A stretch of DNA of 64,000 nt from Eopsaltria australis. Its lineage: Eukaryota; Chordata; Aves; Passeriformes; Petroicidae. Shown here one piece after another: positions 1,160 through 47,884 of the stretch. The notes beneath the pieces were generated by a model that was not told the DNA's origin, did no database searches, and was given only the letters and a program-made list of their open reading frames with translations. Position 1 is the first letter of the stretch, and every line of letters starts with the position of its first letter. Both the position numbers and the translations under genes were made by a program. The DNA is taken from positions 9,769,001-9,833,000 of the forward strand of contig JAVTVJ010000012.1 of NCBI GenBank assembly GCA_034509425.1. Direction: 5' to 3'.

Positions 1160-4299
<3,140 letters not shown>

Positions 4300-21328: not shown

Positions 21329-21585
21329 CGTCAAACTTAAATACTGAAGTGCAGCTAATTAAAACCCTATTTGTCCTTCAAATGTCTTTCCTCCTCTTGT
21401 GTGTGGATAATGACATACTAGCTTCTCACTTCAGTGGCCAAACTAAACAAATGGAAAATAATTCTGGTTTGGGTAGAACGGAAAACATTTTAGTCAATCC
21501 AAAACAAAAGAGTTTATTTTTATTTCTTTTTATGCATCACCTGGAAAATCAACTTTTAAATGGAAATGTAACTTCACAACTATAG
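21329..21585 (+). pseudogene. CATSPERB: CATSPERB relic segment 1 (N-terminal extracellular part)
   Basis: After the acceptor TTAATTCCTTTCAG an open frame of about 85 codons begins SNLNTEVQLIKTLFVLQ. It includes VDNDILAS and NNSGLGRTENILV and ends GNVTSQL before TAG. Mammalian CATSPERB near its N terminus has, in the same order and spacing, C-S-N..., an [E/Q]-[I/L]-I-K-x-x-[L/F]-[F/V]-L strand, a [T/V]-[E/D]-N-[E/D]-I-x-(x)-S segment, a G-G-L turn and an N-[I/V]-T site. Identity is modest but the spacing is conserved. No preceding signal-peptide exon was recognised. Confidence 0.5.
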
Positions 21586-21879
21586 TTTTGTCCCAGTTTT
21601 GCAGCAACAACAGGCATAGTCCTTTTCTGTATTGTTTTCAGGTCTCCAGAAAACATTTCTTCTTAAGTGGCACATACCTTTGTTAATAATTACTATGTTC
21701 CTCAAGCATGTTTTTCAGAAAATCTATTATTTCCTACGAATACAGCTCCCTAGTCCGCTGGATTGTAAGGGGGGGGAAACCATTTAATTTTTCTCCTTGC
21801 GCCAAAGAGGAACTCCCTGGGGTTTTATTTATTATCTTCTGTTGAGGGAATTAATTTTATATCCAGCTGTCCTGCGCAT

Positions 21880-22260
21880 CCCGGCAGCTCCTGCTCAGAA
21901 CCAGCCTCGCCCGGGCCCGCCGCTGCGGAGCTGCCCCGGGCACGACTCCTCCGCCACCCGCTCTGTGAGGGGCGGGCAGCGAGGCCGCGGCCGCCGCGCT
22001 CGGCAGTGCCAGCCCGTGCCTCGGCCTGACCCCCACGATCTGCCTGCCCCCGGGTTAGTTAAGTACCAGCAGTCAGCGGCTCGCCCGGGCTGCGGGCCGT
22101 GCCTCTCTCCCCGCTGGTGCCGGTGCCCGGCCCCGGGTCCCCACACGCCGGCCGCAGGGAGACAAGATGGCGCCCGTCCCACGCCGGCGGCCGCGCTGTG
22201 CGCTCCTCGCCGCGGAAAATAAACCATCCGCTTGATCTCTCCTGCCACGCAGTGGCTGCT
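21880..22260. promoter_or_regulatory. Orphan CpG island / candidate promoter
   Basis: This is about 380 bases of very GC-rich, CpG-dense sequence inside AT-rich surroundings. It contains a GC box (GGGGCGGG near 21967) and a YY1-like initiator element AAGATGGCGCC at 22164-22174, similar to the one in the PPP4R3A promoter. CpG density of this degree normally marks an unmethylated promoter. No functional gene starts here, and by my assignment it lies in the intron between the first two CATSPERB relic segments. The 100-140 codon open frames across it on both strands are what GC-rich DNA gives by chance. Confidence 0.6.
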
Positions 22261-22842
22261 GTGCGGAACTGTCGGAAAACCGTGTGTCAGGCCTCGGTAA
22301 ATGGGGAGGTTGAGGGCAGATTTAATTCCCCCGCCCTGCTGTGGTCAGTTCAAAGTACAAATTCCCCCGCTTCCTCAGCTCCAGCTGCATCCAGGCTCGC
22401 ACATCAACACACTCCGGAGCCAGGTCACAGGTAGTTCCCAAGCTCCTCGGTTGTTCTTTTCTTTTAGAGGGGAAATAAACGCTAGGAACGATGAGTTTGA
22501 TTTATTTCTAACACCGTTATTATCTGTTAAACTATCACGGGATCAGAGCCACACTGGAAGGCAGGAGCGGCTGGTGCAGGTCTGAGGCGGCAGGACAGGG
22601 GTGGCTCACAAAACACCGCACGCATCAGAGTTGCTAAACCCTCCTCCGCTCCTTCAGGGGCCCTGTCCCCCCTCGCAGGGGTGCCGGGCAGCACTGGGCT
22701 CTGTGGGCTTAGCAAACTGCTTGTCAGTTCACTCTTAAATGGGGAATGGCGATGCATGGTACCGGCACCGCTCCAGGGACTGGCAAAGTTGAAAGCAGAA
22801 ACAATGGCTATTAGGGAGTTGTCGACCAACAAAAGCAATTCC

Positions 22843-22856
22843 TCTAGGTAAGTAAG
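22843..22856 (+). other. Strong unassigned 5' splice site
   Basis: The sequence TCTAG|GTAAGTAAGT matches the U1 consensus strongly and lies about 600 bases downstream of the orphan CpG island. It could end the first exon of a noncoding transcript from that island. The open frame before it does not resemble CATSPERB convincingly. Confidence 0.3.
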
Positions 22857-23020
22857 TAGCCCTATATCCTCTTATAGATGATTCAAAGGCAATTAGGCCT
22901 TCTTAAATTGATTTGGCAATTTCAGCACATGTTGCTGCCTTCAGTCAGGTGAGAGAACTTGCTGCTTCCCTCGTTGCAGAGGGTATGAATAAGGAGTCTC
23001 TTTTCATTTGTAATTCACAG

Positions 23021-23200
23021 AACTGGATTTATGGTGTCCACAGAGTCTTTGGTAAGGAGCCATCTGATACATTTATGTGATGAGCTGGAAACACCCACAT
23101 TTAATCACTATTCTGACCTACCCCAGAACAGGCATCAATTGGGAAATATTTCTCTTTACCAGCCCACCTTATTTTACCTAAAGAAGATACATAGAGAGAC
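23021..23200 (+). pseudogene. CATSPERB: CATSPERB relic segment 2
   Basis: This opens after the acceptor TTTGTAATTCACAG. In one frame it reads VSTESLVRSHLIHL, later HQLGNISLYQP and FYLKK. The mammalian protein has [V]-E-E-W-L-V-R-I-T-L-H-H, then after almost the same number of residues L-G-D...S-x-L-Y-P and V-D-L-K. The distance between L-V-R and L-G is 27 residues here and 28 in the mammalian protein as I recall it. Conservation is thin, so the call leans on position and spacing. Confidence 0.45.
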
Positions 23201-24109
23201 TACATTAGGCTAGTTCACATTTACCCCAATGTCCAGGAAGGCTTTTAAGCCAATGTCTTGCTTTCCATTCCATTTCTAATACGACTTGGCAGAATGAATT
23301 CCTGATCTTCCTTGAAAAGGAATTCTCTCCATTTAAGGTCACAAAATGTACAGTCAGGATGGTATTAATTTTAATTTATATGTCCAAGAAAAGTACAGTT
23401 TAAAAATATGGCTTAGTTATGCCATTTTGTTTGCTGAAAAAAAATTATTTTCCATGCTACTTGAAAAGGAAGACTGATGGCCCTGTGCTTCCAACAATTC
23501 ACATACACATGTGCAAAACAGATGGTTTCTGGGTTGGCTCACTGACTTCTCCATCTTTCTAACATCCAGATTGACAAGAGAGACGCTTCCAATCATTTTT
23601 ATCCTTGAAATAAACATTTAGAACCTGTTGAGACCTTCTTTTCAGGCATTACTCCCTAAAGATCATATTCTGTATTACTGAGGAGTCTCATTTATTGTCC
23701 ATTGAAGCCAATGGCAAATTTTCCCTTGTCTGACGCAGTGGGCACAGATGAGGGCCAGGCAGGGAGCAGGCCTCTGTTCTGCCAAGTTTCAGCTAAAGAC
23801 ATGCAATAAAGGGGCAAAACCTCTCCCACAGAACTCAGAATCTAAGAGAAGAGGTAATTGTAATCTGCCATTTCCTAATGTTCCCAACAAACAGTTTGAG
23901 GGTTCATAAATTTCAAAGACTTCACTGCAAAAAGAAATTCTTTCCATTTTAACACAGAATTATAGAATGGTTTGAACATAACTGGGCTGATGAAGTTCAC
24001 CTAGGACATTCTGAAAGTTTCCTCTCCCCCATTTAATGATGATTCCAGCATTAGCTGAGTAACACGTATTAGCACTAGAATGAACTTTTTAAAAATTCCT
24101 TTTTAAATG

Positions 24110-24180
24110 GATGCACTAAGCCAAGCACTTCCCATGTTGCCTCTGCTAATTCTGGAGCTAAGTGTATTTGAAGAGAAATG
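24110..24180 (+). pseudogene. CATSPERB: CATSPERB relic segment 3 (tentative)
   Basis: The frame reads ALPMLPLLILELSVFEEK, compared with mammalian ...L-T-N-H-F-L-V-I-L-T-S-L-G-L-F-V-S-E-D-L. The pattern L-[L/V]-I-L-x-L-x-[V/L]-F-x-E agrees, allowing two single-residue gaps. No strong acceptor is visible at the left edge. A hydrophobic strand of this kind can match by chance; it is included because it falls in the right order between neighbouring relics. Confidence 0.3.
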
Positions 24181-24326
24181 TATCTCCTTAACCTTTGTTT
24201 TCTCAATTGGCTGAGTCTACAGTGATCCTGTGTTCCATGTTTGCAAAATGAGCTTTGCTGCTAGAGTTTTACTACAGGGTCAAGAATGATGAAAAAGTAT
24301 GCTGAGAGAAAGCCAAATCCTTCTTA

Positions 24327-24367
24327 AAACACAGATGTCTTAAATTTTCCAGATGTCATCTGTGTTT
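24327..24367. repeat. Perfect 11-bp inverted repeat
   Basis: AAACACAGATG (24327-24337) and its exact reverse complement (24357-24367) are separated by 19 bases, so the region could form a small hairpin. It is too short and isolated to name as an RNA gene. Confidence 0.5.
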
Positions 24368-24619
24368 AGCGAATAGGATGAGGGGTTGGATGCTGATGGA
24401 TTGACTGTGAGTGATCAACCTTTCACTGTTAGACCACCAGTCCTAAGGAAGCACAGAACAGTGAGAATTACCAATTACAGGTTGGTATTTGATTTTATGA
24501 AATATGTTTGCTGGCCATGATCCATTTCAAAGTAAGCAAATTTGCATTTCTTAAAAACCTACAGCAATATAAGAATTCATTACCACAAATATAAAGTTAG
24601 ACAAACTCTTTTCTTTCAG

Positions 24620-24685
24620 CATCAGATCCTTTAGATTAGGTTTGGGGGAGAAGTATGTATAATTCTGAAGCTGCACTTCTGCTGC
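24620..24685 (+). pseudogene. CATSPERB: CATSPERB relic segment 4 with in-frame stop
   Basis: After the acceptor TTTTCTTTCAG, one frame reads SDPLD, a stop (TAG), then VWGRSMYNSEA. Mammalian CATSPERB has V-D-Y-V-K-G-K-L-W-Y-N-E-R here. D-x-V-x-G-[K/R]-x-[W/M]-Y-N agrees without a gap, and the tyrosine codon is replaced by TAG near 24637. The downstream part of the exon has drifted beyond recognition. Confidence 0.45.
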
Positions 24686-26860
24686 TAAGCAGTTCAGGCC
24701 TTGGGAATGCAAAGAGAGCACCCAGTAGTAGCAAGAAATTTAGAAAATAAAAAGTCAGCCAGAAATATTTTATGGAAACTTGTGGAGATTAGACCTGGGG
24801 ACACTACTGACCTTTAGATTTCTATTTACAGTAAGTATTTGGAAAGCTCTCACAGCTTCCTTGAGACTAAGAAATTGATTTGGCAATATGAACTGTGCTA
24901 TGACCTTCTTTATACTTCCCGGTGATTGCTGGGTTTTTTTTCATTATTAACTTTCTGGTGAGAACTAAACTTAGAAGATTATTTTAATAATAAGTAGTGA
25001 TTTCTTTAATTTGAATTAAAATTCTCTTTAATATAAAAGTTTCCTTTTTTTTATTTTTTCTCTTCAAATACTCTTTTCTGCTGTTTTAAGTGGCAATTTT
25101 CCTTACTAAGTACAACTTTCCACTGCTTATTTTAGTTGTCATTTTTTACTGGCTTATCATTGCTTTCACAACACTCTGTTTGGCAAGCATTGTTCTCCTA
25201 TACTGATAATATACTGGTATCATAGTGACAACATGATCTTATTTTTGAGAGAGTGAGCCAACAGTTTCTGTAATACATAAAAACCTTTTTACAGACCATT
25301 GTGCTTTGGGTCAGTGTTGAATATCAGAAACTGAAATTCTGAGATCAAAAGTGTTTTCCTGGCTGTGTCGGAGGCATTTTTAGGTGAATTAGGGTCAATA
25401 GTTTTCACCACGGTATCTCGTGTTCACCATCAGACTGAGCCTGTCTGCTTCTCAGGCACATTGGAACTCAGCTTGCTGACGTTTTTAAAATACTTTAACG
25501 TATTTGCAAATGTTACTTGCAATTACTATTAACTTTATGAGCTGAAGTTGTTCTAATATGTATGTATAGTGAGAATTGTAGAAGACTTACTGCTGTTGTG
25601 ACTTTTGCAGTTCTGTTGACTTAAGGGGATGTTCTGATGTTTTATAAGTACCTATTTTTGTATGTATGTATACATATACATTTATATGCACAGGGCATAT
25701 ATTGGCTATGCAAGGCAGTAGTGTCACTACTGGTTTTATTCCTTCGGTTTCTGCTTCTACCTGTTGAACTTCCTCATTTTGCACTTTTTTCTTGGAGGTT
25801 TGCCACAGATGACCAATTATTTCCTGATTTTATTACCCTGTATTTGAAGCTCTTTCCTTTGCAGCTTGGGAGGGCAGAGGAGAAATTTAGGAATGCTGAT
25901 AGCATCACCTTTGAATAAGGCTTTGCTGTGGGTTTGTGTTTGGCCAGCTGGTAGAACTGCAGTCATGTCAGCAGTGTATTGCTGCACTGCTGTTTATGGC
26001 ACAGTAACCTGCTTCTCCACACTTGGCTCCCTGCTCTGTAAGAAGGAGAAAATGCTAAGCATTCAGAGCTGACTGCTGCTGTGATCTTTACTCACTGTCT
26101 GTAGAAGGATAAATATGGATACTTCTAGAAGAAATTGCATCTTTAAAAATAGGAGTGTTAGTTATTTTCTTTAGATTTTGTTCTTTGATGCATCTGGCCT
26201 GGGGTATACAAAACCTGCCGTACGTTCCTCAGAGGGAATAAGGTACCTCGTGCCAATTAACAGTATGAACAGATGATTGCAAGCAGATGTGTGAGGGTTG
26301 CTTCAGACGCTGCTGACCCCTCCATTCAGCTGTCTGTGAGCACACATCTTTGTGTGCAAGGTGAAATGAGATGTGTTAACTCTCCATGAGGAGAGATTGG
26401 CAGCAGGCAGCTCTGGTTGTCAACGTTTTCAAACTGCTGCTGCAGTTGACAGAGTCAACAGCCTTTACTCTCAGGGGGATCTGGGTATCAGGGAGGTATT
26501 ACCAGTAGCAAATTTAAAATGTAATGTATTTTTTTCTATGCTAGTAACCTTAATGTATATTAAAGCTCATTTGATTATTTTTTTGATTTTGGTGATGACC
26601 ACATGTCATTTTAAAAGTAGGTTTTCTTAAGCATATAATAATGGATTTCCTTTTATATGCAAGTCTCTCAAAATTAGAGACAATTACAAGAGAAATTACA
26701 TGTTTAAATAAGGCTGCATCCACTCTTATTCCTTCATTCCTGATACAGTATTTTGAAGTTCAGTGCTAGAATAAGAAATCTGATGATAGCTAATTGAAGG
26801 TGAGGTGAATAGTGGCAGGTGGCAGCTGTTTATTTCAAAGAGGTGAGTTGCAGAATAGAA

Positions 26861-26900
26861 ACAAGTATGTAGTGGGAATCCAACAAGTATGTAGTGGGAA
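26861..26900. repeat. Two-copy tandem duplication, 22-bp period
   Basis: ACAAGTATGTAGTGGGAA occurs at 26861-26878 and again, identically, at 26883-26900. This is a small recent duplication in the CATSPERB relic's intron. Confidence 0.75.
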
Positions 26901-27194
26901 GCTAAAAGCTGCAACTTCCAGACAAATGGATATACTGAATATGTGTTGCCCAGAAAAGAATGAGTACACATTTTAGGGTAGGCCAAACAACTTTGAATTG
27001 TAACCCTGGAGCTTAGTTGCAGCTACTTGAATTTGTCTGGGATGTTACCAGTAAATATTCTTATAAGAATGCAAAGAGATATTTTTAAACAGAATGAACA
27101 AAGCTTTGATCTTCTGTATAATCAGAATAATTAGATCTCCAGTGGGGGGGTGGTGCTGCTGCTGCTGCTGTTTGTTTATGTTCAGACATTTCAG

Positions 27195-27290
27195 TTTCCT
27201 GACTGGGAGAATAATTCATGTGCTATTTCCTTGGAGGTCTTTCAGGGTGCTGACTAGATTCCATCGTTTTTTGCCTTGAGAAGCTTTTAA
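27195..27290 (+). pseudogene. CATSPERB: CATSPERB relic segment 5 with in-frame stop
   Basis: After the acceptor CAGACATTTCAG the frame reads FPDWENNSCAISLEVFQGAD, then a TAG at 27255-27257, then IPSFFAL. Mammalian CATSPERB has F-L-E-W-V-P-C-L-P-H-I-F-K-G followed by three residues and F-P-T-V-L-T-F. The elements F-x-[E/D]-W, C, [I/V]-F-[K/Q]-G and the P-[T/S]-[V/F]-[L/F] strand appear in order, and the last two have identical spacing. The stop falls at a residue that is hydrophobic in the mammalian protein. Confidence 0.6.
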
Positions 27291-27427
27291 GTGATCTAGC
27301 TATACCCAAATACAATTAACCATTCGTTTTGCCTGTTATTGTATTTGTCTGAAAGTTAACTTGCATGATTTATAGATTTAGTTTTATGTCAAAGAGATTT
27401 AATCACTACTGATTTTATTTTTCATAG

Positions 27428-27562
27428 AATGCTCGGCTCGCTGTGCAGCGCCGCCTAGTGCACAGACCCGCTGCTGCAGCCAGGGACGGCTGCGGCACTC
27501 GGCATGGCTGGGAAGGATGAGGAGCCTTTCCCGGACAGCTCATGGCAAACGACGTTACTCAG
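27428..27562 (+). other. GC-rich exon-like patch of unknown origin
   Basis: A 135-base GC- and CpG-rich island sits abruptly in AT-rich sequence. On the left is an acceptor-like TTTATTTTTCATAG and on the right a possible donor CAG|gtcttg. It contains one ATG at about 27504 opening a 21-codon frame (MAGKDEEPFPDSSW...). It lies between two CATSPERB relic exons and matches no CATSPERB sequence I know. Possibilities are an exon of a noncoding transcript, a GC-rich mobile-element fragment, or a small promoter. Confidence 0.35.
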
Positions 27563-27752
27563 GTCTTGAAAAAAAGAAGCTTTTTTATTTCCAGCTTTCC
27601 TTCTCCAACACACGTGTAATATTTGCCTTCTCCTTACTTAAATTCATTCCTGGCTTAAGTATAGTCTAATCTTACTTTCTTGTTAGTCTGTGTAATAGCT
27701 GCAGGGCTGTTATACTTCTACCTATTGATGCTTAATGTGTTATTTTTCTTAG

Positions 27753-27895
27753 CACAAGTCCGTGGTTGCTTTTTGCAATATAGGAGGCCACAAACTGGAC
27801 CCCTGCATTTCCAAGGTTTGTATTTCTATACACCGAATTTTTGCCACATGGAATGCTTTTTCACATAGTAATTTCTCTCTGTTTATGGAAATGAG
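27753..27895 (+). pseudogene. CATSPERB: CATSPERB relic exon 6: splice sites kept, stop and frameshift inside
   Basis: The flanks are TTATTTTTCTTAG and gtatgt. In one frame, after an in-frame TAG at 27781-27783, the sequence gives FPRFVFLYTEFLPHGMLFH. Mammalian CATSPERB has F-P-I-F-R-F-(6)-P-x-G-M-V-F-H with exactly the same spacing. After a frameshift near 27868 the last codons read FLSVYGNE, against F-L-Y-A-Y-G-N-Q, directly at the donor. Joined to the next exon this gives YGNE|VCLSSDGG against mammalian Y-G-N-Q-I-W-L-S-V-D-G-G. This is one of the clearest exons of the relic. Confidence 0.85.
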
Positions 27896-28504
27896 GTATG
27901 TATACAAATAAAGTAACTTTGAATTTAAGTGTAACATAACCTTTTCTCTTTTTTTCCCCTTAAGTAGTAAATTAAAGATGTAAGCGGTCCAAATTTGCTG
28001 TTATAACTGTTTTGGCAAAGTTTCAGAGGAATTTGCAGAGGAACCAAGCTCAAAATTATCAATTTAATGCATTTTAAGTTACTGGACTCACTCTTTTACA
28101 GTGTTTGTACTGTTTCTATCAGTGGTCTCATTTAAATTGTGAAACTTTCTAAAATAATAGTTATTCATCATAAGTACCATCAGCAGAAATTGATCTTTAG
28201 TATGGAAATCCTTCATTTTAGGCTTTTGTAGAGACTACTGAAGAAGCTGTCTGTAAATCAGTTTTTTCTACAAGAAAATCTCAAATCAGCAGGGAGAGGT
28301 TTCTTTATAAATGAAGTTCTGTGTCAGGTGATTTTCATCTATGCACAGTAGTTTACAGACAATTATGAAAATAAATGGCACTTTTACACTTGATGAAGTG
28401 GACAGGTACTCTTTTCAGAAAATATTAATTAACTAAAAAGCAGTCTCTGCAGTGGCTCTGCCTCTAAATATGCATAATAATTCAGAGCACTATTTATTTA
28501 ACAG

Positions 28505-28645
28505 GTGTGCCTATCTAGTGATGGAGGCAATTGTTTTCAATTATTAAATCTTGAAGATGAAAAAAATTGTAAAAGCAAATATATGTGTACAGTCATTCAG
28601 TCACCTTCATGAGCAATAAGGGAAGCCTCTTCTTCCCTAAGGCAG
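28505..28645 (+). pseudogene. CATSPERB: CATSPERB relic exon 7 with -1 frameshift
   Basis: The exon starts after TATTTATTTAACAG and ends GGCAG|gtgcag. It opens VCLSSDGGNCFQLLNLEDE, matching mammalian I-W-L-S-V-D-G-G-N-T-F-Q-L-I. After a frameshift near 28590 it reads SVTFMSNKGSLFFPKAG, matching A-I-T-F-V-S-Q-R-G-K-V-Y-S-T-K-A-G. The exon is 141 bases long. The entry and exit phases required by its neighbours need one base more, so a net one-base deletion explains the break. Confidence 0.88.
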
Positions 28646-30006
28646 GTGCAGAATTTAAACCTACTTTTGCCATGAAACGTGGCATGAGAGCTACATGAAA
28701 AAGCTCCTGCATTAGGCAGTCTTCACACCTACTTTGTTAATGCTGTTTTACCATAAATATGATATCTAGAGAAACATTAATTCTTCCTGTTAGTAAGTTC
28801 TGAGTGAAGTTCCAGGTTAGAATACTTGATAAAGAAAGGATTTGTAGAAAGCAGTGGTAATGTACTTTATTAGTTGTGTAGTTGGCAGAATCCGGCACAA
28901 TCCTTCATCTAGCTGAAGTGCAGCAGGATCCAGACAAAGTATTACAGTGATACCAACACACAAGCAAGGAAAGTGTAGTCTGTGACTGTGCTAAGCATGA
29001 GCAGTCATGCTTCATTACTGGCTGAAAGGTCATCAAAGGACACAGCAAGCTCATCAGTGATATACCATATATTCCTTGTTCGTCTGCTACAGAATGCAGA
29101 TGGCTGTAGTTAAATAACTCATGTATTGTCACTGTATGGATTGAATCTTGACAGAGAGACTCCTTTCTCCCCTTCCATTTGTTGTAGTGTGCTAAATATA
29201 ACATACTAGGATAACATTGACTTATATATATCATATCAGGAAAGTATAGATTTAATTGATCTGTATTTTAATTAATCTCTTTGCTTGACAAAAAATAGTT
29301 AGTCTGTGTAAGGAGAGAACTCTTTAGAAGTCACTTTCTGTGACAGAACAGTGATTCACCAATCCAAGAGCTGATTTTAATTGAATGTTTTGGTGCTATA
29401 TTTTGCCATGAAGGAAAATAAAATGTGTCATTATTTTTGTGTGGTGTATGTTCTGTGAGAATCAAAACACATTTGGCTCACTGCTCCTCTACTATACAAA
29501 GAAACTTATCAAGTTCAATGTGCATACATAAATTTCACTGAGGGAGGTGTGTACTGATGCTCTAGGGAGAAGGAAATTGTGTATAAAAGATAATTTAAAT
29601 CAATGGTAATTTCGCCATTATTTTTGCCATGCTTTGAGTTGACCCCTACGTTTTCTAATCTATAGATAAGTATACAGATACAAAGCCCTTTATTCTTGTA
29701 GAACCTTCTTGAATTTATTACATGTAAGTATCCACTCCAATTACCACTGCAGGATAATGTACATGGTATTTTTTCAGGTATCTTAGGAAAAAAACATTCT
29801 ATTTTTTTGGGTTCTCAATTTGCTCTGAAAAGATGCTTTTCTTCCCCTTGCCAATTTGCTCTGAAAGTGTTTCTTTAGGTATATGTCAAAGCGAGAGATC
29901 TGATTTAAATACTGAACCTCAATTCTACTCTGTATCATCTTAAGCAGCACAACTTTTGCTTCTCTTCATGTGATTATTTATTTCTAATTTGTTGCCTGTA
30001 TTTCAG

Positions 30007-30105
30007 TTCGGTACATTTGGAAATATATGCCAGGTCTGAGACTAACAGCAAGTGTTGACAGTTTGTACTGTGATCATTTGGGAGCTTTGCATCTAACTAT
30101 TTTGG
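30007..30105 (+). pseudogene. CATSPERB: CATSPERB relic exon 8: open, with intact splice sites
   Basis: The exon is 99 bases, after GTTGCCTGTATTTCAG and before the consensus donor gtaagt. Entry and exit are both phase 1, matching the donor of exon 7. It codes for VRYIWKYMPGLRL, then TASVDSLYCDHLGALHLTIL. The mammalian protein has G-R-Y...T-E-R-I-F-T-L-Y-Y-D-H-L-G-F-L-H-K-L-T-L-G: 8 of 13 positions identical over the core L-Y-x-D-H-L-G region. No stop or frameshift. The downstream open frame to 30380 is intron read-through. Confidence 0.88.
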
Positions 30106-30639
30106 GTAAGTCAAAGTCTGATGGGCTGGAAATAAGGAAGCTAAATGTTTTAAAATCAATGGAGGTCAGCTGTCAAAAAATTCAAATAAGTGTTGTAAAA
30201 TCTCCTTTAAATCTGAAAGGGACAGTTTGCTTGTCATTTTACACGACTTCAAGAAGATTTGATTTCTGCAAGGAACTGAATAAAAAATATCCTTATTGTA
30301 TGAAGAAATGCCAGGCCATTGCATATATGCAGCTGTATGTACATTTTAAATGTGTAAGCTCAACTGTGTGGCATCAGTAATGCAGTCAGAGTAAAATTCA
30401 GGTAAGAGATAACTATGAATCCTGTAGTACCAGTCCCCATTCTACAACAAAGAGAATGATCTGAGAGCCCCTCTTCAGTTCCCTCCAAACTGAGTGTGCT
30501 TGAAAAGGCTTCTTCATGCAACCGATGTGGCCAGGTTACACTTCCCTGGTGCAGAGGGCTTTGAGTGTTCACTTCACCCTTGGAGCACAGCTTGGTGTTG
30601 CTGCATAGGCAGACAGTACTATGTATGAAAAACTACATT

Positions 30640-30760
30640 TCTGACTTACACCTTTTCACTTATCCACATTAAATTTCACCTGCTCTTTTATAATCAGTCT
30701 GATGATACCATGACATCCCTCTGCAACTGTGCAGTAACAAACAAAAGAATGTTGGCCAAA
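30640..30760 (-). mobile_element. Ancient LINE fragment (CR1/L3-like)
   Basis: The stretch around CACATTAAATTTCACCTGC, followed by a C-A-T-C-C-C-T-C-T-G-C-A-A-C region, recalls a widespread, strongly diverged sauropsid CR1/L3-type element, here in antisense. It lies in the intron between relic exons 8 and 9. Identification is from memory of the consensus. Confidence 0.4.
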
Positions 30761-30902
30761 TACTTCAGAGCTTCTATTTTTACTTTTTTGATATGTTGTT
30801 TTAGATGTTATAAGCATAATAAATGTTCTAACAAATGTGAAAATTCACGATTGTGGAACTATGGTCAAACATAACATTTTTTATCAATATTTACTTTTTC
30901 AG

Positions 30903-31080
30903 CTTTTCAAAAATAGATCTACCAGTAGTAATTCTGATTCACCAAAGCACCTCTATTTTAAGGAAACAAGTTCTGAAAGCAAGGACACAGCCTATTTAGC
31001 ACAAACTAAACTGTTTGGTCTGCCTTTAGCTCAGTATTGATGACATCAATGTCATCAGACTATTTCTAGTTCCAAAGATT
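30903..31080 (+). pseudogene. CATSPERB: CATSPERB relic segment 9 with frameshift
   Basis: After the acceptor TTTACTTTTTCAG, one frame contains DTAYLAQTKLFGLPLAQY and a stop. This compares with T-A-F-(4)-R-N-L-F-G-Q-P-P in the mammal, gapless with T-A, L-F-G and P shared. In a second frame from about 31030 it reads SIDDINVIRLFLVPK, against S-L-D-E-I-I-F-F-A-Y-V-P-E. Two frames are needed, so a frameshift separates them. Confidence 0.65.
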
Positions 31081-31099
31081 CATAGATTTCTTGGTGTTC

Positions 31100-31440
31100 T
31101 GGTTAAGGAATGGTGCTCCCCAGTTTAGTGCTCCCACTGAGACTCTCCGAACTGGGCTGCCATTCACTCGCTCCCCCTTCCCTCCCTCCCTGTGGAGGGC
31201 TGAAGAGGAGAACTAGGGGCACAAAAGGCAAAGATCAAAGGTTGAGAGAAAAACAAATTACTGGGAACAGCAATGAGATAAGAAAACAACCAGTAACAGC
31301 AGCAGTATTAATAATAAAATACTCCCCCCATACCCAGAAAATGACACAAGGCATTCTAGAGTAACCTCCATGTCCTAGACTGTGCCCCCTCCTGACTACT
31401 GCAAAAATTAACCCTGTCCTGGCTGCAACCAGGACACTTA
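31100..31440. mobile_element. ERVL-type LTR fragment (avian)
   Basis: The interval has composition and phrases characteristic of avian ERVL LTRs as I remember them: a CTCCC-rich start, a GGGCTGAAGAGGAGAA block, an AACAG..AATAATAAAATA block, and ACCCTGTCCTGGCTGCAACC near the end. There is no coding region. It is probably a degraded solo LTR, inserted next to relic segment 9. Orientation and ends are uncertain. Confidence 0.45.
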
Positions 31441-32457
31441 GTTGCCTACACGATTCATACAGAACTCTGGAAAAATCAGGAGGTCTGGATGAGCTCAAAA
31501 ACAAATAGATACTATATGTAACAGATCATGCCTTACTTGTTGAGTATTTATGCAACTCAGCCTAAACAAAATAGTTGTTATCAGTTGTAAAGATGTATTA
31601 TGTTGTTATTTGATCAGAAGTTTTCAGACACACATAACAAGAAACAGAAAGTTGTATAGCATCAGTGAGTACAGTAGATTATTAGTACCAAAACTACCTG
31701 AGAAAATCTTTTAGGTTACCACCACTTCTTATAATCTATCATATCTGCTGACAAAATCAGTTTGACAGGCATTGTAAAAGATGTCAGTCAATCCTGAGAG
31801 ATTTGTATCCTTAGCTACCTTTCAAGGAAATCATTTGAACTCTTCTTAGAAGCTGCATATTTTCAATAGGTAGACACTCAATGGTTTCTACCTATCTTCT
31901 TGTTTATTAGGTAAGTATTTTACTTCCACAAGAGTTCCTAGAATTCACAGTCATGGGCCTGTGTGAAGTGATTCTTCAAGTGTGTCCACTGTTAAACTGA
32001 TGTATTTTATCTTTCTCTTGAGCTGTATCAGGTTTTTCTGATATGTTCCAAATTTTTAGAGGTAGGTGAAAGTAGGAATAAACACAGAGGGGAGATAGGG
32101 CATTCAATCCCCTACTACATTTTTAAGGAAACTTTGCTTAGCAGCATTTACTGCAATCAGTGATAAAGCAGCAGAGTAAAACTTTGGTGATCTTTTAACA
32201 CTGTTTCTCCACCATACTCTGTCTTCCATAATGTTCACATATGCACCATAACCTAACCTTCTTTGTAACATTCTAAAGATCTGGGTCATTTTTTAAGAAA
32301 TGTTGCCATTTAAAAATAACAAATTCCCACATCTTTTGTCTTCTCCAAACCACAAATCTATGTGGAAATTATTTCTCTGTACATTTCAGATCTCATTGTA
32401 TAAAAATGTTTTACATTGCTGTCTTTACTGACCTATTTAAGGACCAGGCAATTTCAG

Positions 32458-32600
32458 TTGACATATATACCACCTTGCATGAATGTGTGCTCCAAAACAG
32501 CTCTCTCAGATGTCACAAGGCACTTTACTGTGCATTTTAGTAAAGAAAAAACAGCTGCTGCTGCTTTTTATGAGTACTCCCTTAAGAAGGAGAGATTATG
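32458..32600 (+). pseudogene. CATSPERB: CATSPERB relic segment 10
   Basis: After AGGCAATTTCAG the open frame reads TYIPPCMNVCSKTALSDVTR, followed by HFTVHFSKEKTAAAAFYEYS. The mammalian protein has S-S-C-L, N-K-A-G-N-V-Y-K-L-T-L-D-S, then V-V-Q-A-L-F-E-D-T-D-I-E-K. C, K, [N/D]-V-x-[K/R], T, S and the A-x-F...[I/L]-x-K segment agree in order, with a few residues inserted in the bird. The frame is open here. Confidence 0.5.
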
Positions 32601-32732
32601 GAACTGTATTCTGTGTGTATGTGCATGCAGATATCCTAGCTATGTCTATGCATAGAGACAGACTATAAACAACTTTAGGGTGGCTTCTTAGTTTGAATTT
32701 GATACAATCATTTCACTTACTGGACAGCTCAG

Positions 32733-32938
32733 GACCTTCTGCCAATAACTGTGGCAATAGCTGCAGAATATATATGGACAAGGCTGTATGAACTCTATTT
32801 ACAAGAAAGAAGGCAAGTAATTGTTCTTTGTCTTTTTCAGCAGACAGGCAAAGGACATAAAATCACAGAATCTAAGCCTGTCTCACAAGCTGGTAGCATT
32901 ACAAGGACTTACTCTCAAATATTTTTTCATCTGTGCAG
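32733..32938 (+). pseudogene. CATSPERB: CATSPERB relic segment 11 with frameshift
   Basis: The frame contains ITVAIAAEY and then VLCLFQQTGKGHKITESKP. Mammalian CATSPERB has N-A-L-A-I-A-T...F-L-Y-N-F-G-Q-R-N-G-R-T-W-K-I-Y-S-K-P. L, F, Q, G, K-I and S-K-P are shared with near-constant spacing. After about 32890 a second frame gives LVALQGLTLKYFFICAG, resembling I-V-K-Y-I-D-L-G-N-S-Y-V-L. The right edge is a good donor, GTGCAG|gtcacc. The left edge is uncertain because its polypyrimidine tract is weak. Confidence 0.65.
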
Positions 32939-33172
32939 GTCACCTGCCATCCACATCTGGTATTTTCCTGTTTGTTTTAACTGCAGAAATTTTTTCTTCA
33001 AAATTTTAAAAAATAGTATAAAAGACACACACTTTTTACTTAGGGATTTATCCATAACAATCAGAAAGTGATACTTCTTGTCATTATTGGCCAGTTGAAG
33101 CAACATTTGAACATGAGTCATTAATTTGATACAGTAAAGGGGGCATTAATACATGTTCTCTCTTATTTCAAG

Positions 33173-33345
33173 CTGTGAACTGTGGTCCTGTATTCCAATG
33201 CCACTGTTTGCTATTCAGAATAGGCCCACCACTTCTTTGGAAGCTTCATGTGAAATGCAGGTTCCAGAGAACGCGGTAGCTAAAAAGTCATTACCTTTAG
33301 CAGATGGGAAGTATTTTACATCTCTGACAATTAGTAGCAGCTCCC
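33173..33345 (+). pseudogene. CATSPERB: CATSPERB relic segment 12
   Basis: After CTCTTATTTCAAG the open frame reads CIPMPLFAIQNRP, TTSLEASCEM and later YFTSLTISSSSQI. The mammalian protein has E-I-P-L-L-T-V-F-V-G-N-P-N-L-L-E-V-T-A-E-V and then S-Y-V-I-T-I-S-A-A-S-K-V. I-P, N, P, L-E, E and T-I-S-x-x-S agree. The bird has about 15 extra residues between the two strands. The frame itself is open. Confidence 0.55.
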
Positions 33346-33613
33346 AGATAACAGCTTCTCCTCAGTTCAGACATCAGAAGGACTCAAAAGATCCTACACC
33401 TTATGGATGAAAAATTTAGTTCTTGGTAGCTTGTCAGAGCCCAGCACTCTGACTGGTTGCCTTTAGATATACCACATGAGGAGTGTTTAATGTTTAATAC
33501 CAAATTTACTTATTTGGTATAGTTGGCATTACATGGCAGTTCAATTTAGCACTGTGATACAGAAATCAATTGAAATCACAGCACAAGCATAATATAGCAG
33601 TTGCAATATTCAG

Positions 33614-33941
33614 GTGTAGTTAAATCTCTGATCTAATGTATTCTCATTACTGGTCCCTGTATGCTCACTGTCATGACATCCCCAGTCACCTGGAAAGAAC
33701 AAATGGATGGAAGCCAGCTCAAGCCTGTTTCTCCCTTCAAAATGTATAATTTGTCCAATTTTTATGCCTTATGTTGTGCCAAGCTACCTATGCATTGCCC
33801 CACCACCCCCATCCCCCAGTGTGGGTCTGGCTGGCTCACAAAGGCATTGCTGTTTGTTAATAATTTTGGAACCTGACGATTCACTGATGAAATTGTCTGT
33901 AACTAAAACCAAGGTTACTGTCCAGTTTACCTGGCATCAAA
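33614..33941 (+). pseudogene. CATSPERB: CATSPERB relic segment 13 with in-frame stop
   Basis: It begins at ATATTCAG and ends at a perfect donor (CATCAAA|gtaagt). One frame gives SGVVKSLI, a TAA at 33634-33636, then ITGPCMLTVMTSPVTW, LKPVSPFKMYNLSNFY and CCAKLPMHC, and later LTKALLFVNN. The mammal has I-S-G-V-H-K...N-L-I-K-T-L, I-N-Y-R-P-P...I-P-L-T, S-K-P-I-P-R-N-M-F-H-M-S...F-K-Q-C-A-N-V and S-H-A-V-A-F-S-D. The stop replaces the lysine of N-L-I-K. A frame change around 33875 precedes KVTVQFTWHQ, comparable to L-V-T-V-T-E-V-N-M-R. Confidence 0.72.
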
Positions 33942-34454
33942 GTAAGTTCAGCTTCCTTGATATTACTTTATTCCCTGACCTCACTGGGGTTTGCCCTTCT
34001 TTGACCTCTCCTCCACAGCAGGGCTGTGCGGGTTGGTTACGCAGCTGAACTGCCAAAACCCCTCCTGAGTCCAGCAGTCAGTGCACGTTGGTACCACGCA
34101 TGGCTTTGCCTCCCTTGAGCAGCAGTAACAGAGAAGTCCTTGCTGAATCACGTCACCACACAGCCCAGGATGCTACAAGCAGCCTGGTCTTGTGAATAGC
34201 AAGGGATGTCAGAAGCTATTGCTCTGTGAACAGCAGCTCCTGTCTCACATTTCTGCTGAGCTTGGAACCTAAACTTTGAAACTCAAATTGGATTTAAATG
34301 CATAAACATTTCCCATTTATTTCAAGCATGCATATAAATGTGGTTATAGCTGTCTATAAATAAATAGGCCCTAAATTTTTTTTTCTTATTTGTGATATGC
34401 TTTGAACATTGTTGTACAATCATTTGAGAAATCACTATAGTAATTAGTGTTCAC

Positions 34455-34588
34455 TATAGAGGCACCTGGATCTGGTGCTGGGTGATACAGTTTAGTAGTT
34501 CAGGGGTTACACTGTTAGTGCTGGGTTAACAGTTGAACTTCATGATCTTAAAGGTTTCTTGCAACCTTGATGATTCCACGATTCTGTA
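34455..34588 (+). mobile_element. CR1 LINE, 3' end
   Basis: The segment from TCTGGTGCTGGGTGA through CATGATCTTAAAGGTTTCTT to GATGATTCCACGATTCTG matches the familiar 3' untranslated region of avian CR1 elements, ending in the imperfect ATTCYRYG repeat. It is 5'-truncated, as most CR1 copies are. Confidence 0.8.
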
Positions 34589-35839
34589 GCATATTAAAGT
34601 ATTGTCAATACAAGGTAATTATTAATGCTTCAAAATCTTTTATGAGCTCACAAGTCACTTCAATACCTCATTTTCCTTACTGTTTGTTCTGCTAATTCTT
34701 GGCTAATTGCTCCTTTTTCTCTGAGTTTTTGCTTACTCCTTCTACTTCGCCTTCCCAGAGACAACACTCCCTTTCAGCCAATTTCTACTCTTTGGGCATA
34801 GCTTGCACTCCACTTTTCCCCATGGCTTTGTTTGAGGCAGAGGCCCCTCAGAGTTTGTCTCTTTCAGAAAGAAGCTGACTCTTCATATTGCTCTTACTGA
34901 AAGATGATTTCCATACCTACCAATACTACAAGTCCAGTAAATTTGTAACATTCTTATCTTCTGTCAACTCATAGTCCTGATGAGGTTTAAAAGAACCTTG
35001 TTGTAAACAGCCCTTTCCAGCAAGGCAACAGTTCCTACTCCGTGTGGACACAGTTACTGCCCTTCACTCACACACACAACTTCTTAAATAGCTGGTACTT
35101 AGCAGATCACTGAATAGGTCAAATTAATAGAATAGAAGCAAAGTGAATGTAAGTAACCGAGATCAGTATATAAATAGAATCTTACTCTAAGAAAAAAATG
35201 TGTATGGTTTGATAATTATTTTAATTGTGTGAAAAAATAGGGATTTTGATGGGGTATGTCTTGTAAGTTGTTTCTATTGGTAAAAGTTTGCATGATAAAT
35301 TGTTTAGGAGGAGATTGTCTTAATCACTAAGATAAACATCTCTCACCCAGACTTGAGAAGGGTAATTTGGCAGTAATTGGTCTCCACTAGTCAAAGGTGA
35401 AGTTTACCCTGACTGACCTTTTATTGAAAAGACAAGCACATAGTATTAGCAGTGTTCAAATCACTAAGGAAACCAGTGTCTAGATACTAGAACTTAACAT
35501 TTCCTCTAAATCAGGAGGAAAAAAAATACTTCAAAGACATATTTCATAAAGATTACAGCATTTATGAATGCAGGTCCCTTTAGGAAATTTGCAAAATTTA
35601 CGCTCTTAGGTCCCAAAGCACACCTTTGAAAATCCGAGCTCTCAGAGGAGACAAAATCCTGTCCCATGCATCTGATGTGATGTGAGCTACACTTAACTTA
35701 TCGGGGGAGGCAGGAAGGAATTCAAGGTGTTCTTGACACAGCAGTCCTTTATCCTACACTGGGCAAGCACCCTGCTGATGATCAGAGTAGCACCAGGATT
35801 TATGATGGGAGTAGGTGACCTATCAAGATGCTTTTATAG

Positions 35840-36071
35840 TATGCATACCTTCAAGAATACTAAAATCTTGAAAGTCAGTTTATTAGTTTCAGGCCCAGTT
35901 ATTGATTTCAGTAATACCTGTCTGACCTTTCTGTCTCTTAAAGGAAAAACAAGCAACTATGCTGTGCCACTCTACCAATGTACCAACAGTCATGCATTGA
36001 TTGCTGTGGCTGGAATTCTGGCTGGAATTGTTCCCTCCCACAGCTACCTGATGAGTCCATCCTGTGTATAG
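35840..36071 (+). pseudogene. CATSPERB: CATSPERB relic segment 14 (membrane-proximal and truncated TM helix)
   Basis: After GATGCTTTTATAG the open frame reads FKNTKILKVSLLVSGPVIDF, then SNTCLTF, and later NSHALIAVAGILAGIV, ending in TAG at 36069. The mammalian C-terminal part has I-K-G-S-E-L-F-H-F-R-V-T-V-I-S-G-V-T-F-C-N-L-I-E-E-F, then H-T-L-I-A-V-A-T-A-V-V-L-G-G-L-I, the transmembrane helix. S-G-x-V-x-F-x-N...F and H-x-L-I-A-V-A are shared. The bird frame loses hydrophobicity after about 14 residues and stops, so the helix and the cytoplasmic tail are missing. Confidence 0.7.
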
Positions 36072-37243: not shown

Positions 37244-38879
37244 TAAAAAAAGAACAAAAAGAGGGAGGGAGCTGCCTTGTAAGAAAGAATTAAACCCAAG
37301 GGCTGGAAAGCTCTGAGCAGTTGAAGTCAGAAGGAAACTTTCAAATCTACACTTCGTACAGATTTTAAAGCGTGAAATAAGTGGAGGTGGAAGTGCTACA
37401 GATAAAAAAAAAAGTTAAATATCCTTCCACAGTTACTTTCATTTCCTTGGCTACAGTACAATAAAGGAGTAGTTAGCCAGTCAGCCAAACTGGCAAAGAA
37501 GCAATAACTGGTGTTGTGGAGGGAGTATGTACAGTTATGATGAAGAAATTTTCCATATTCTATTCACATAGCTTTGAATGGAAGTTTGAATTTTTTTTCC
37601 TTTCCTTGGGATTTGCTTAAATTACGGAGTACTAAATACATATCTTTGCTTTCTTGCTCAATTTCACAGCTTATCTAATGCTTCAAGTGTGTTTAATAAA
37701 CCTTGTTGTTGGCAATCAATCACTACTGGAAGTGAATGCAAAAGAGGACTGGGAATGGATAGCCACAAACTGGAATTCTCTGCAGCAAAGTCATTAAATT
37801 TACAAATTGCATCTATTACAAGCCATTAAGGGAGAAAAAATTAATTCTGATCAATAGCTTTGCGTCCACATTTTTGTATTCTGAATGGTTGTTCAAATAC
37901 AAATTTTACTCTGAATAGTTTTGGGAAATGGGAGAGTTATGTTTAGACTTAGTCAAAAAAAGTAATTATTTATTTTACATAGTGTAAAAAATAGTTATAT
38001 AAAATTTTACTGAAATTCCCTGATCATCTTTTCTCAGTCCTTGGATAGTATATTAATATATGTCAACAAAGCATTCCTCTACATAATAAAAACTGTTCAA
38101 GAAATGTTATTCTTTATGAAACTCCAAGTAAAGGAAATGTTCCTCTTCTGATTTTGGTTCAATCTTGTTACTTTATTATTATTTCTTATATTCCTCCATA
38201 TCATCCTCCAAATAGTCAATTTCTTTCTGGTCTTTCTGTTTGATTCCATAGAGATGTGCATTTAATTACAAATATCTCATAAGATGTAGTTCAGAAGAAT
38301 TAAAGGAAATCAAACTATAGGCATTGGTTGAGATCAATCTTTGTAAGAATGCTTTCTGATGGAATGGAATGACTTTGATACAGATGGGAAAACTCAGATG
38401 GGTAGTGGGACATCTCAAGAACTGCAAAATAATCTCAGAACTCTCTTACACTGATTCGTCATAAGGAAAGATTGTGAAATAAATCAGTTAAAGAAATAGT
38501 AAATGACTGCCAGGGCATGGAAAGGTCATGCATGAATTTTAAACATGAAATTCCTCACTTGAAAACTGTGGTGTTTAACCCAACATTTCAATCAACCAGG
38601 AGAACAGAAGTTGACAGACATGTCACTAGTTTTTACAAGCTACTAATCTCAGGGGTTATCTGAGGAACTATAATACCCAAGGCCTGACTTTTATGGGTGG
38701 CAAACTAATTGAAATTATTGTAAAATAGAACAAGTAGAAATTTTAGTAAATTAAAATATGAAGGAATAATTATTATGGTGTTTGAGAAAGGAATTTGCAT
38801 AGCAAATGTAGTAATCATGAGGTTGAGATGGTGATTTTTATGTACTTGGATTTGTAAAATGCTTCTTTGAGAAAGGCAC

Positions 38880-39760: not shown

Positions 39761-42700
39761 TGACTGACACTTTTTCTCTGACTGTGTTCAGTGTCATGTT
39801 TAGGCAACATCAGTTGAGCAATATGAGAAGCTCAGTATAAAAATAACATCCTTTTCAAAGTATTCTTTCCATTTGTATCTACCACCCCTCTCTACTGTGA
39901 CAGGCATTGCCAATAGCTAAAAATATGCAAGCACATAAATAACATCAGCGCCTATCATGTGGCAGTGATCTGCTTGTACCATACTTGTCCACGTCATTTC
40001 TGTTACCAGTTTTACCAATTCATAATTGGCAACTGCTCCTCCCAAGTACTCTGGTAAAATATGGCCTTGCCACATACACTGAAAACTAACAAAATCAGGC
40101 TTTTGTCACATTAAATGTAGAACTATGAACTCTTCAAAATCACCTCACTAAGTACACTTCAAGGCCATTCCTAACAGAAAGAGGAATCAATGAAATAGTC
40201 TTCTGATCATCATTGTAGGAGCATTACAGAAGAAGAAAGCCAGATTTGAAATGAGTGATTCCAAGATAAACAAATTCAAACAATTCCCTTTATACCTTTG
40301 CACTAGATTAGTAGGCAGGAGAAGCAAATTTTGCAATGCAGATGTATCTGTCAGTGCAAATATGGTATTTACTGCATTCTTTTAAATGGCTATCTTTGCT
40401 TTGGAAGTTACTAATTTATTTCCACAGCACAGCTGTCTATAGGGTAAATCTATAACAACTGTGATTATCCCAGAAACCTTGTGTATTTGGGATATGGTAG
40501 CATGTATTATAACACAGAAGAGTGGCAGCACATTCGTTGCATATTCATTGCATTCCTCCAGTTCCAGTTACTGCTGAACTGTGGCTACAGAAAGATACAA
40601 AAGATGAAAATGGCTTTCCTCTCCTCGAAGAACTGCAGTTAAGAAAGCTAAGACACCGTTAGGTGGTGCCTAGGAATTGATGTAGAAAGAGAACTTCCTA
40701 CCTTGTGCATTTATTTTGCAAAAGAACCATGAGCCTGTCTATTCTTATGTGCACATTTATCTGAAGAAATTATCAACAACAGCCTACAAATTTCTTTAAG
40801 GAGAATGCACTGTGCAGAAATAAATCAACAGCAAAATCAGACACCAGACTGAAAAAGTGCATAAAATGAGTCTCTTTTTAATATATGCTAAAATATGCCT
40901 TTTGCTATTTAGGATGAATAAATTAAACTGCTATTTTCCATGTAACCCTATGACCTCCTGGGGAGTTGTTTTCAGTACAGTGTTTTGGAGGGGAAAAAAA
41001 TCCCTCAGGATCCCTAAGTTCTTCTGCAGTGAAAGAAATTAACTGAGATAGCTGGAGGCAAGAAACAGCACCACTCCCAATTCTGATACCATTCAGTGTA
41101 CTACTGTAAGAAAAGTGCCATTTAATTGTCATTCCAAAACCATCTTCTCTTTAAATGGCTTAAGTCTTGTTTTGCTAACAAGTTTTTATTTAATTTTGCA
41201 AAATGCATGGATTTGAGTTTAAACTACTATAAAATTGCATAATATGTCCTGTGCTTAAAATGCAATTAACAGAACTTGTATCTCCTATTAAACTCACATT
41301 TCCAATTTCCCCCATACTGTTACTTTTGCCATGTCCATGCCTTCATCATAGTTTGTGGCTACAGTGGATTCTCTACACAGTTATTTTGCAATATTATCAA
41401 GGATCTTCTTTCCCCCTTGCCACTCCTCATGCCTACAAAGAGGCTATACTGAACTAAATGACAAGGTTGTGTGCTGGAATCCCCAAAAAGCCACTTCCTG
41501 GGAAAACTGAAAACAATATTTGCAATGTGAAGAAGAAGAGCACCACACATTGGATAAACCAGAGGCTGATGCATGCCAATTGATAGGGGAAGGCTTTCAA
41601 GGCAAGTATAAAACAGGAAAGAGAAGGATAGGAAAAAACCTCTGAAAATGTACTTGGCTTGAAGGGGAACTAAGTTGTGTGGGACCTTGCAAGCACAGAG
41701 ATTAGTCCTATAGCAAGGAACATGGTACAGCAGAGATTTCAAACAAATTATAGCTATGAGCAGGATGGCAGGTGAGAGCATAACCTAAGCACAGCTAATC
41801 TGGGTGTGCTGAAAGGAATTCGGAGGAACACAGAGATATAAAGGGGGCAGCTGTTGAGTAAAGGAGGGAGATGAGCTTGATTGGATCCATGGTTTCCTCG
41901 GTGAGAAGGTCAGGGAAGGGATTTAGTGCTGGTCCATGTCATATATAAAAGGTAACAGGAAAGTATAAATCATAATCCCAATGATTTGGGATTATGAGAA
42001 GTGAGAAGCACAGAGGACAGCAGGAAGGGATCAAGGTTTCAGCTTTACTGACTGGAATTAGTCTTGTTTTCTTTTATCTCTAGTTGCCCCAGAATACTCT
42101 CATGGCTGCAAAGCACTGCAAGATCTTTAGGTGATCAAGGCTCTAGGGTGGCTGTTTCAGAGGACCTCAACAAATGCCAGCTGGCAATTCTGTTGTCCCC
42201 ACACTTGCACATTAAATTAAATGGCTATATTACACAACATATCTGAAATAGTAGAGAATGTCTTGACATCAGGGAATCTCAAACACCTATCTACCTGAGC
42301 GCAGATGTTTACAATATTTTTATGCAGAAGATTACAGAAAATTTAAAGAATTCTCACCATACTCTTTTACTCAGTATTAAACACAAACACATAGAACTGT
42401 AATATATTCTTATAGATTATACATTCTGTCATTATTATTTTCTCAGGTTCTGTCACTAACGAAAGCCATAAACGTCACAAATAAATCCTGCATGTAATTA
42501 GTTTAGACAATTGTTAGTGAATATTTAATATATATTATTCCAATAAAATAATAACCAATGTCTATACAGTGACAAGCTGCAGTGATGATTAATGAAGTGA
42601 TACGCACTTACACTGTCTTTGGTGGTAATGTCCAAGTGTGGTCCTAGTTGTATTTAGGACTATTCATTCTCCCTGTGGATTCAGTCCCACTGTCCTGCAC

Positions 42701-47861: not shown

Positions 47862-47884
47862 AAAAAAAAAAAAAAAAAAAAAAA
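47862..47884. repeat. Uninterrupted run of 23 A residues
   Basis: This is the longest homopolymer of the window. No polyadenylation hexamer sits at the usual 15-35 bases upstream, so it does not look like a transcript tail. Confidence 0.9.

What the first reader, a model, noticed from the sequence alone, without database searches (positions are those of the whole stretch)
21329..36071. A decayed but still readable CATSPERB gene in a bird-like genome
Between TC2N and PPP4R3A, where mammals carry CATSPERB, fourteen + strand segments match that protein in unbroken N-to-C order. The clearest are exons 6, 7, 8, 11, 13 and 14. Several splice sites are exact, yet at least four in-frame stops and four frameshifts break the frame, and the transmembrane helix is truncated. 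Birds are reported to have lost the CatSper channel, but a locus with this much of the accessory subunit still legible is useful: it dates the loss and shows it was by decay in place and not deletion. The stops and shifts are seen in the sequence; identity rests on by-eye comparison with the recalled mammalian protein.
Basis: partly seen in the sequence, partly recalled or inferred. Interest (0 to 1): 0.82.

Follow-up and report, generated by a model that had tools for sequence, protein, structure and literature searches.

The report
Dead sperm-channel gene in a bird
This stretch of a bird genome holds the wreck of CATSPERB, a part of the sperm calcium channel: a few exons are still readable but broken and most of the gene can no longer be found, which agrees with earlier reports that most birds have lost this channel.

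Summary
The core observation holds; much of its detail does not. TC2N's last codon is at 4,296 and PPP4R3A starts at 50,221, both on the + strand. Between them lie broken CATSPERB exons in + strand order; the chained score is 280 bits, against a mean of 26 in 12 shuffles. Five exons are secure: 27,753-27,895, 28,505-28,645, 30,007-30,164, 37,670-37,784 and 40,443-40,635. Three 5' pieces have weaker support.

Two secure exons lie beyond its end. The presumed transmembrane segment near 36.0 kb is out of order and fits placental mammals better than birds. Secure exons show seven frame changes and no in-frame stop. Simulated exons decayed like the survivors would be seen in the N-terminal, middle and C-terminal parts, where little or nothing is found, so exon removal besides decay in place is likely.

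Closest proteins are palaeognath CATSPERBs, 60-68% identical. No neognath is named among the 120 shown of 150 hits. A degenerate fragment at this locus in chicken was published in 2008, fragments in zebra finch in 2019 (passages seen).

The parts
1160..4296 (+). Last three coding exons of TC2N (aligned at 1,160-1,276; 1,746-1,952; 4,186-4,296, the last up to the final sense codon): upstream flanking gene
   Evidence: tblastn of recalled human TC2N, 62-74% identity, E 4e-11 to 2e-27; C2 domain in the middle exon, nothing relevant in the other two
21850..22450 (.). CpG island between TC2N and the first CATSPERB remnant; possible old CATSPERB promoter (inferred)
   Evidence: GC 0.67, CpG observed/expected 0.85 over 601 bases; the promoter role rests on position only
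22949..23053 (+). Exon-1-like remnant, similar to residues 1-38 of a kiwi CATSPERB model (medium confidence)
   Evidence: local score 58 against 32.9 +/- 3.1 in 100 shuffles (highest 45), 0 of 100 reach it; reverse complement 41; the query was picked
24800..24889 (+). Candidate N-terminal exon remnant with one stop (medium to low confidence)
   Evidence: score 42 against a highest of 40 in 40 shuffles, z 3.0; part of the N-terminal chain that beats 40 of 40 shuffles
27220..27276 (+). Candidate exon remnant with what looks like its 3' intron edge, similar to an ostrich model (medium confidence)
   Evidence: score 48 against a highest of 40 in 40 shuffles, z 4.9; in order just before the first secure exon
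27753..27895 (+). CATSPERB exon remnant A, turtle residues 387-437, two frame changes, acceptor and donor kept
   Evidence: tblastn sum E 0.002
28505..28645 (+). CATSPERB exon remnant B, turtle residues 439-485, two frame changes, acceptor and donor kept
   Evidence: tblastn sum E 1.6e-9
30007..30164 (+). CATSPERB exon remnant C, turtle residues 486-535, frame change near 30,047, acceptor and donor kept
   Evidence: tblastn E 7.7e-8; 85 bits; block end coincides with a GT donor
33034..33102 (+). Weak candidate: exon edge resembling an emu model, in the right order
   Evidence: 1 of 100 shuffles reach the score; 2, 1 and 0 of 40 shuffles reach the regional chain at block costs 14, 16 and 18
37670..37784 (+).
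   Evidence: tblastn E 3.6e-7; windowed HMM E 1.6e-5 with mammals alone
40443..40635 (+). Flanking sequence 40,367-40,442, taken as intron, also resembles an emu model.
   Evidence: tblastn sum E 8.6e-17; 118 bits; flanking match 0 of 100 shuffles
45621..45668 (+). Weak candidate for residues just after exon E, with one stop
   Evidence: inconclusive, the reversed-profile control scored higher in this region
47189..47266 (+). Weak candidate C-terminal exon remnant with one stop
   Evidence: 2 of 100 shuffles reach the score; z 3.3 to 4.5 with three models; tblastn E 0.32
50221..50364 (+). Start of PPP4R3A (first 48 residues): downstream flanking gene, next to a CpG island at about 48.9-50.3 kb
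   Evidence: phmmer E 1e-25 to PDB 6r8i, PPP4R3A; tblastn of recalled human protein E 4e-23; island

Best explanation
This is a unitary, intron-bearing pseudogene of CATSPERB, the beta accessory subunit of the sperm calcium channel CatSper, left at its ancestral place in a bird that is probably a neognath. Once the channel was no longer kept by selection, the locus broke down as a mosaic: some exons decayed in place by substitutions and frame changes, while most N-terminal, middle and C-terminal exons, including the transmembrane helix, were removed or scrambled beyond recognition. It makes no CATSPERB protein. Shown: homology, order, strand, synteny, frame breaks. Inferred: neognath identity, exon removal, lack of a product, absence of a working copy elsewhere.
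For: Synteny. tblastn of 10 palaeognath models. Chained alignment of 280 bits, with none of 12 shuffles and none of 3 other controls above 38.5. A query whose scored part held window read-through pieces (and 33 marsupial residues) ranked 9 palaeognath protein clusters above every mammal; a tenth, a partial emu model, ranked below many mammals. Identity to the window is 60-68% for 7 palaeognaths (59-233 residues compared), 48-51% for 4 turtles and alligator, 27-34% for two mammals (233 residues each). Seven frame changes, with 5 of 5 acceptors and 3 of 5 donors found by eye within 10 bases of block edges from an alignment that did not model splicing. Simulations show that uniformly decayed exons would have been detected. 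Published fragments at this locus in chicken and of this gene in zebra finch (passages).
Against: Pfam and PDB scans with long read-through queries were negative. The N-terminal, middle and C-terminal intervals show no clear signal with the mixed profile. A placement inside palaeognaths is not rejected (AU 0.49 with ostrich). A copy elsewhere in the genome could not be looked for.
Confidence: 0.93

Rival explanations
1. Pure decay in place: all exons are still there, point-mutated past recognition, with no deletion.
For: The five secure exons are decayed in place and in order. Weak candidates at 33.0, 45.6 and 47.2 kb, and the three 5' pieces, could be further decayed exons. At 0.35 substitutions per site a part of the simulated stretches is missed.
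Against: Simulated stretches at 0.15, 0.20, 0.25 and 0.30 substitutions per site with 0.012 indels per site scored above every one of 40 shuffles in 36 of 36 runs at each rate (12 per region). The observed scores were 0.0-5.4. Survivors fit about 0.15-0.20 by identity, and 0.15 or less by score.
Confidence: 0.2
2. The surviving exons are kept because they overlap conserved non-coding elements, so rates differ along the locus and no deletion need be assumed.
For: Sequence next to exon E also resembles the emu model (0 of 100 shuffles), as does an intron-like edge at 27.2 kb the ostrich model. Survivors are clustered.
Against: Rfam finds nothing in the window. Frame changes occur in each of the five secure exons.
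Confidence: 0.15
3. Chance similarity to a large protein in AT-rich DNA.
For: Single windowed hits with mammals alone reach only E 1.6e-5 at best, and one out-of-order hit (29,788, E 0.0015) ranks among the true ones.
Against:: real order and strand beat every control by a wide margin.
Confidence: 0.01
4. A functional but fast-evolving CATSPERB with shifted exons.
For: Several splice sites are intact.
Against: Frame changes in all five secure exons, and no clear trace of the C-terminal domain and transmembrane helix.
Confidence: 0.01

Closest known systems
Degenerate CatSper-beta fragment on chicken chromosome 5 (Cai & Clapham 2008, PMC2572835)
   Same: Same gene, same interval between SMEK1 (PPP4R3A) and TC2N, no obvious coding region left, a 66-residue fragment readable (passages)
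   Different: Here five exons and three weaker pieces are mapped, with frame changes and an estimate of what is missing; the 2008 fragment may be one of these exons (not checked, the figure is not held)
CATSPERB fragment in zebra finch (2019, PMC6679542)
   Same: Fragment of the same gene in a neognath; the paper infers neognath loss of CATSPER1, CATSPER4 and CATSPERG (passages)
   Different: Its table lists a single interval of about 112 bases for CATSPERB
Palaeognath CATSPERB (Nothoprocta P0121, Struthio P0123, Dromaius P0126, Apteryx P0127, Rhea P0122, Tinamus P0129, Eudromia P0162)
   Same: Closest sequences found, same order of residues
   Different: Annotated gene models carrying CATSPERB Pfam domains, most of them shorter than the 1,068-residue Nothoprocta one; the window copy is broken and mostly missing

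Membership tests
CATSPERB gene lineage | Sequence homology in collinear order | tested here: met
CATSPERB gene lineage | Position between TC2N and PPP4R3A on the same strand | tested here: met
CATSPERB gene lineage | Pfam CATSPERB domains above cut-off | tested here: not met
   no family in 2 of 3 + strand frames of 20,001-34,999, read through with X; the third frame, the stretch beyond 34,999 and joined exons were not scanned
CATSPERB gene lineage | C-terminal domain and transmembrane helix | tested here: not met
   no clear signal in 40,640-49,000 (4 of 40 shuffles reach the real score at block cost 18); weak candidates at 45.6 and 47.2 kb only; the segment near 36 kb looks like chance
Unitary pseudogene | Disabling changes in the orthologous copy | tested here: met
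   seven frame changes in five exons
Unitary pseudogene | Introns kept, so not a processed copy | tested here: met
   the five secure exons are spread over 12.9 kb, splice sites kept
Unitary pseudogene | No working copy elsewhere in the genome | not testable with these tools
   search of the own genome did not complete
Unitary pseudogene | No spliced open transcript | not testable with these tools
   no expression data held
Neognath bird origin | Branches outside all palaeognaths | tested here: inconclusive
   best tree places it outside (AU 0.80, bootstrap 51) but ostrich sister is not rejected (AU 0.49), nor tinamou sister (0.12); rhea sister is (0.04) (6 palaeognaths, Eudromia left out)

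The most novel reading that the evidence does not exclude
The CpG island at 21,850-22,450 is the old CATSPERB promoter, still active after the protein was lost and kept unmethylated by a surviving non-coding transcript, while the gene body was dismantled mainly by loss of whole exons and not by point decay.
Probability: 0.2. Interest if true: 0.45.

Novelty: already known. Interest (0 to 1): 0.27.

Why it matters
[quoted passage not shown] An exon-level map with palaeognath genes as yardstick makes shared disabling changes testable across birds, and separates exon loss from slow decay. The loss itself, and a wreck at this very locus, were already in print.

Tried and rejected
Long read-through frames (about 5000 residues) against Pfam (2 of 3 + strand frames) and PDB (3 + strand frames): no CATSPERB. 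I attribute this to the score penalty of very long queries and went on with smaller units.

GC-rich matches of one mammal model (P0118) at 21.9 and 49 kb: rejected as compositional. Out-of-order windowed hits at 29,788-29,925 (E 0.0015) and 26,997-27,062 (E 0.08): not confirmed with palaeognath proteins.

Candidate at 25,812-25,835 (about 20 bits): short, not among the 22 printed of 148, left out. Candidate at 37,556-37,579: below the bar. It was wrongly included in the 241-residue identity count and dropped for the 233-residue count.

One search holds a slip: one of 11 query pieces (ostrich, middle interval) was the wrong part of the protein because a text search failed. Its rows are among the 148 scored. 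The composite N-terminal query and the kiwi piece were chosen, so those shuffle tests are somewhat flattering. Against my reading: the mixed profile saw nothing in 21,000-27,750 (35 of 40 shuffles at or above the real score). In the wider interval 4,301-27,750 at block cost 14, 5 of 20 shuffles and the reverse complement reached the composite's real score. For the C-terminal interval the reversed-profile control scored above the real one at all three block costs, and 4, 1 and 1 of 40 shuffles reached it.

The power test uses one rate for all exons, takes emu as ancestor, and emu is also in the profile, so it favours detection; its middle and N-terminal stretches held 187 and 245 residues.

Rfam scan: nothing. 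Direct repeats of 30 bases or more in 4,300-50,200: none; one inverted pair. The retained splice sites were read by eye near block edges.
Full report
Flanks. The last three TC2N exons end with the final sense codon at 4,296 (tblastn of a recalled human protein; C2 domain in one of the three). PPP4R3A begins at 50,221 (PDB 6r8i, E 1e-25). The interval between them is 45.9 kb, and the window holds no N.

References. It aligned nearly end to end with mouse 7eeb chain E in two halves and gave five Pfam CATSPERB domains, so it served to collect relatives. One search listed 120 of 190 hits, all mammals as far as their names show. One search scored a stretch made of read-through pieces of the window plus 33 marsupial residues. 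Its first nine of 32 hits were palaeognath birds, above every mammal; a partial emu model ranked lower. One search, with the Nothoprocta protein, listed 120 of 150 hits. The birds named among them are seven palaeognath genera (Nothoprocta, Dromaius, Tinamus, Struthio, Apteryx, Rhea, Eudromia), together with turtles, alligator, squamates and mammals. No neognath is named among the 120; the other 30 were not shown.

Is the homology real? With mammal profiles the chained score on the + strand (20,001-48,500) was 57 bits, against 14-21 in 11 controls. With palaeognath models tblastn found 11 hit clusters with E from 8.6e-17 to 0.002, all on the + strand and in order; the next of the 40 printed has E 0.19. 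With a mixed sauropsid profile the chained score over 4,301-50,200 was 280.3, against 25.8 +/- 4.8 in 12 shuffles and 21.7-29.8 in three further controls.

What is left. Five exons are secure: 27,753-27,895, 28,505-28,645, 30,007-30,164, 37,670-37,784 and 40,443-40,635, for turtle residues 387-535 and 771-883 with small gaps. The alignment model knew nothing of splicing, yet AG acceptors lie within 10 bases of the block start in 5 of 5 exons and GT donors within 3 bases of the block end in 3 of 5; two of these edges match exactly (read by eye). Seven frame changes fall in these exons: three inside blocks (near 28,565, 30,047 and 37,757) and four between neighbouring blocks of one exon. No in-frame stop falls in the secure blocks. 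Three further pieces are in order and have moderate support: 22,949-23,053 (kiwi exon 1, 0 of 100 shuffles), 24,800-24,889 (z 3.0, one stop) and 27,220-27,276 (z 4.9). A chain over 21,000-27,750 with a composite palaeognath query beats 40 of 40 shuffles, while the earlier mixed profile saw nothing there (real 13.8, with 35 of 40 shuffles at or above it). Pieces at 33,034, 45,621 and 47,189 remain weak.

The best exon (40,443) and another secure one (37,670) lie beyond the stated end. The transmembrane segment, which I take to be the stretch ending at 36,071, scores 32 with two placental proteins but only 19-22 with six sauropsids, and 21 with a marsupial; another frame of the same DNA also reaches 31-32 with two proteins. 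A bird remnant should be closest to the sauropsids. It also lies upstream of the exons for residues 771-883. The start at 21,329 lies upstream of a CpG island and of the kiwi exon-1 match. The count of fourteen segments and of four stops is not reproduced; only the end points were given, so I could not test every segment.

Decay or deletion? I decayed an emu-derived coding sequence in silico and planted it in shuffled background. At 0.15-0.30 substitutions per site with 0.012 indels per site, the C-terminal, middle and N-terminal parts scored above the highest of 40 shuffles in 12 of 12 runs each. At 0.35 this was so in 9, 7 and 8 of 12. The observed scores were 5.4, 1.3 and 0.0. The survivors, 60-68% identical to palaeognaths, fit 0.15-0.20, and the score of residues 387-535 (143 bits) fits 0.15 or less. 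Since intron-like edges also stay alignable, the simplest reading is that most missing exons were removed, not merely point-mutated. The simulation assumes one rate for all exons and uses emu as ancestor, so this is an inference.

Which bird? The remnant is about equally close to four ratites (67-68%, 183-186 residues compared). The best tree places it outside the palaeognaths (AU 0.80, bootstrap 51), but a position next to ostrich is not rejected (AU 0.49). Neognath origin is therefore likely, not shown.

Prior work, seen as passages only. PMC2572835 reports a 66-residue CatSper-beta fragment between SMEK1 and TC2N on chicken chromosome 5. PMC4290089 reports CATSPERB in birds only from a ratite. 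PMC6660944 reports CatSper genes in Apteryx and Tinamus alone among the birds it examined. PMC6679542 reports fragments of CATSPER3, B, D and E in zebra finch, the same pattern plus CATSPER2 fragments in chicken, and neognath loss of CATSPER1, 4 and G. PMC12006431 treats birds as lacking CatSper. The listings showed no title or abstract that announces an exon-level account of this locus; they cover only the held library, and I looked into five papers. The finding is a confirmed, known kind of event with a corrected map.

Noticed in passing
window 21,850-22,450: A CpG island (GC 0.67, CpG observed/expected 0.85) sits alone between TC2N and the CATSPERB remnants, about 500 bases before the exon-1-like piece. 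It may be the old CATSPERB promoter or that of an unannotated non-coding RNA.
   Followed up: partly
window 50,308-50,310: PPP4R3A residue 30 reads Cys where PDB 6r8i has Gly, in an otherwise identical 47-residue stretch; could be a real substitution, a polymorphism or a sequencing error.
   Followed up: no
window 40,367-40,442: Sequence before exon E, taken as intron, resembles an emu model that seems to retain intron (P0137), so non-coding DNA at this locus is still partly alignable between this bird and emu.
   Followed up: partly
P0125, P0137, P0123: These public palaeognath CATSPERB models have stretches that match no other relative I aligned and look like retained introns or odd N-termini; this is my reading of the sequences, not checked on genomic DNA.
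   Followed up: no
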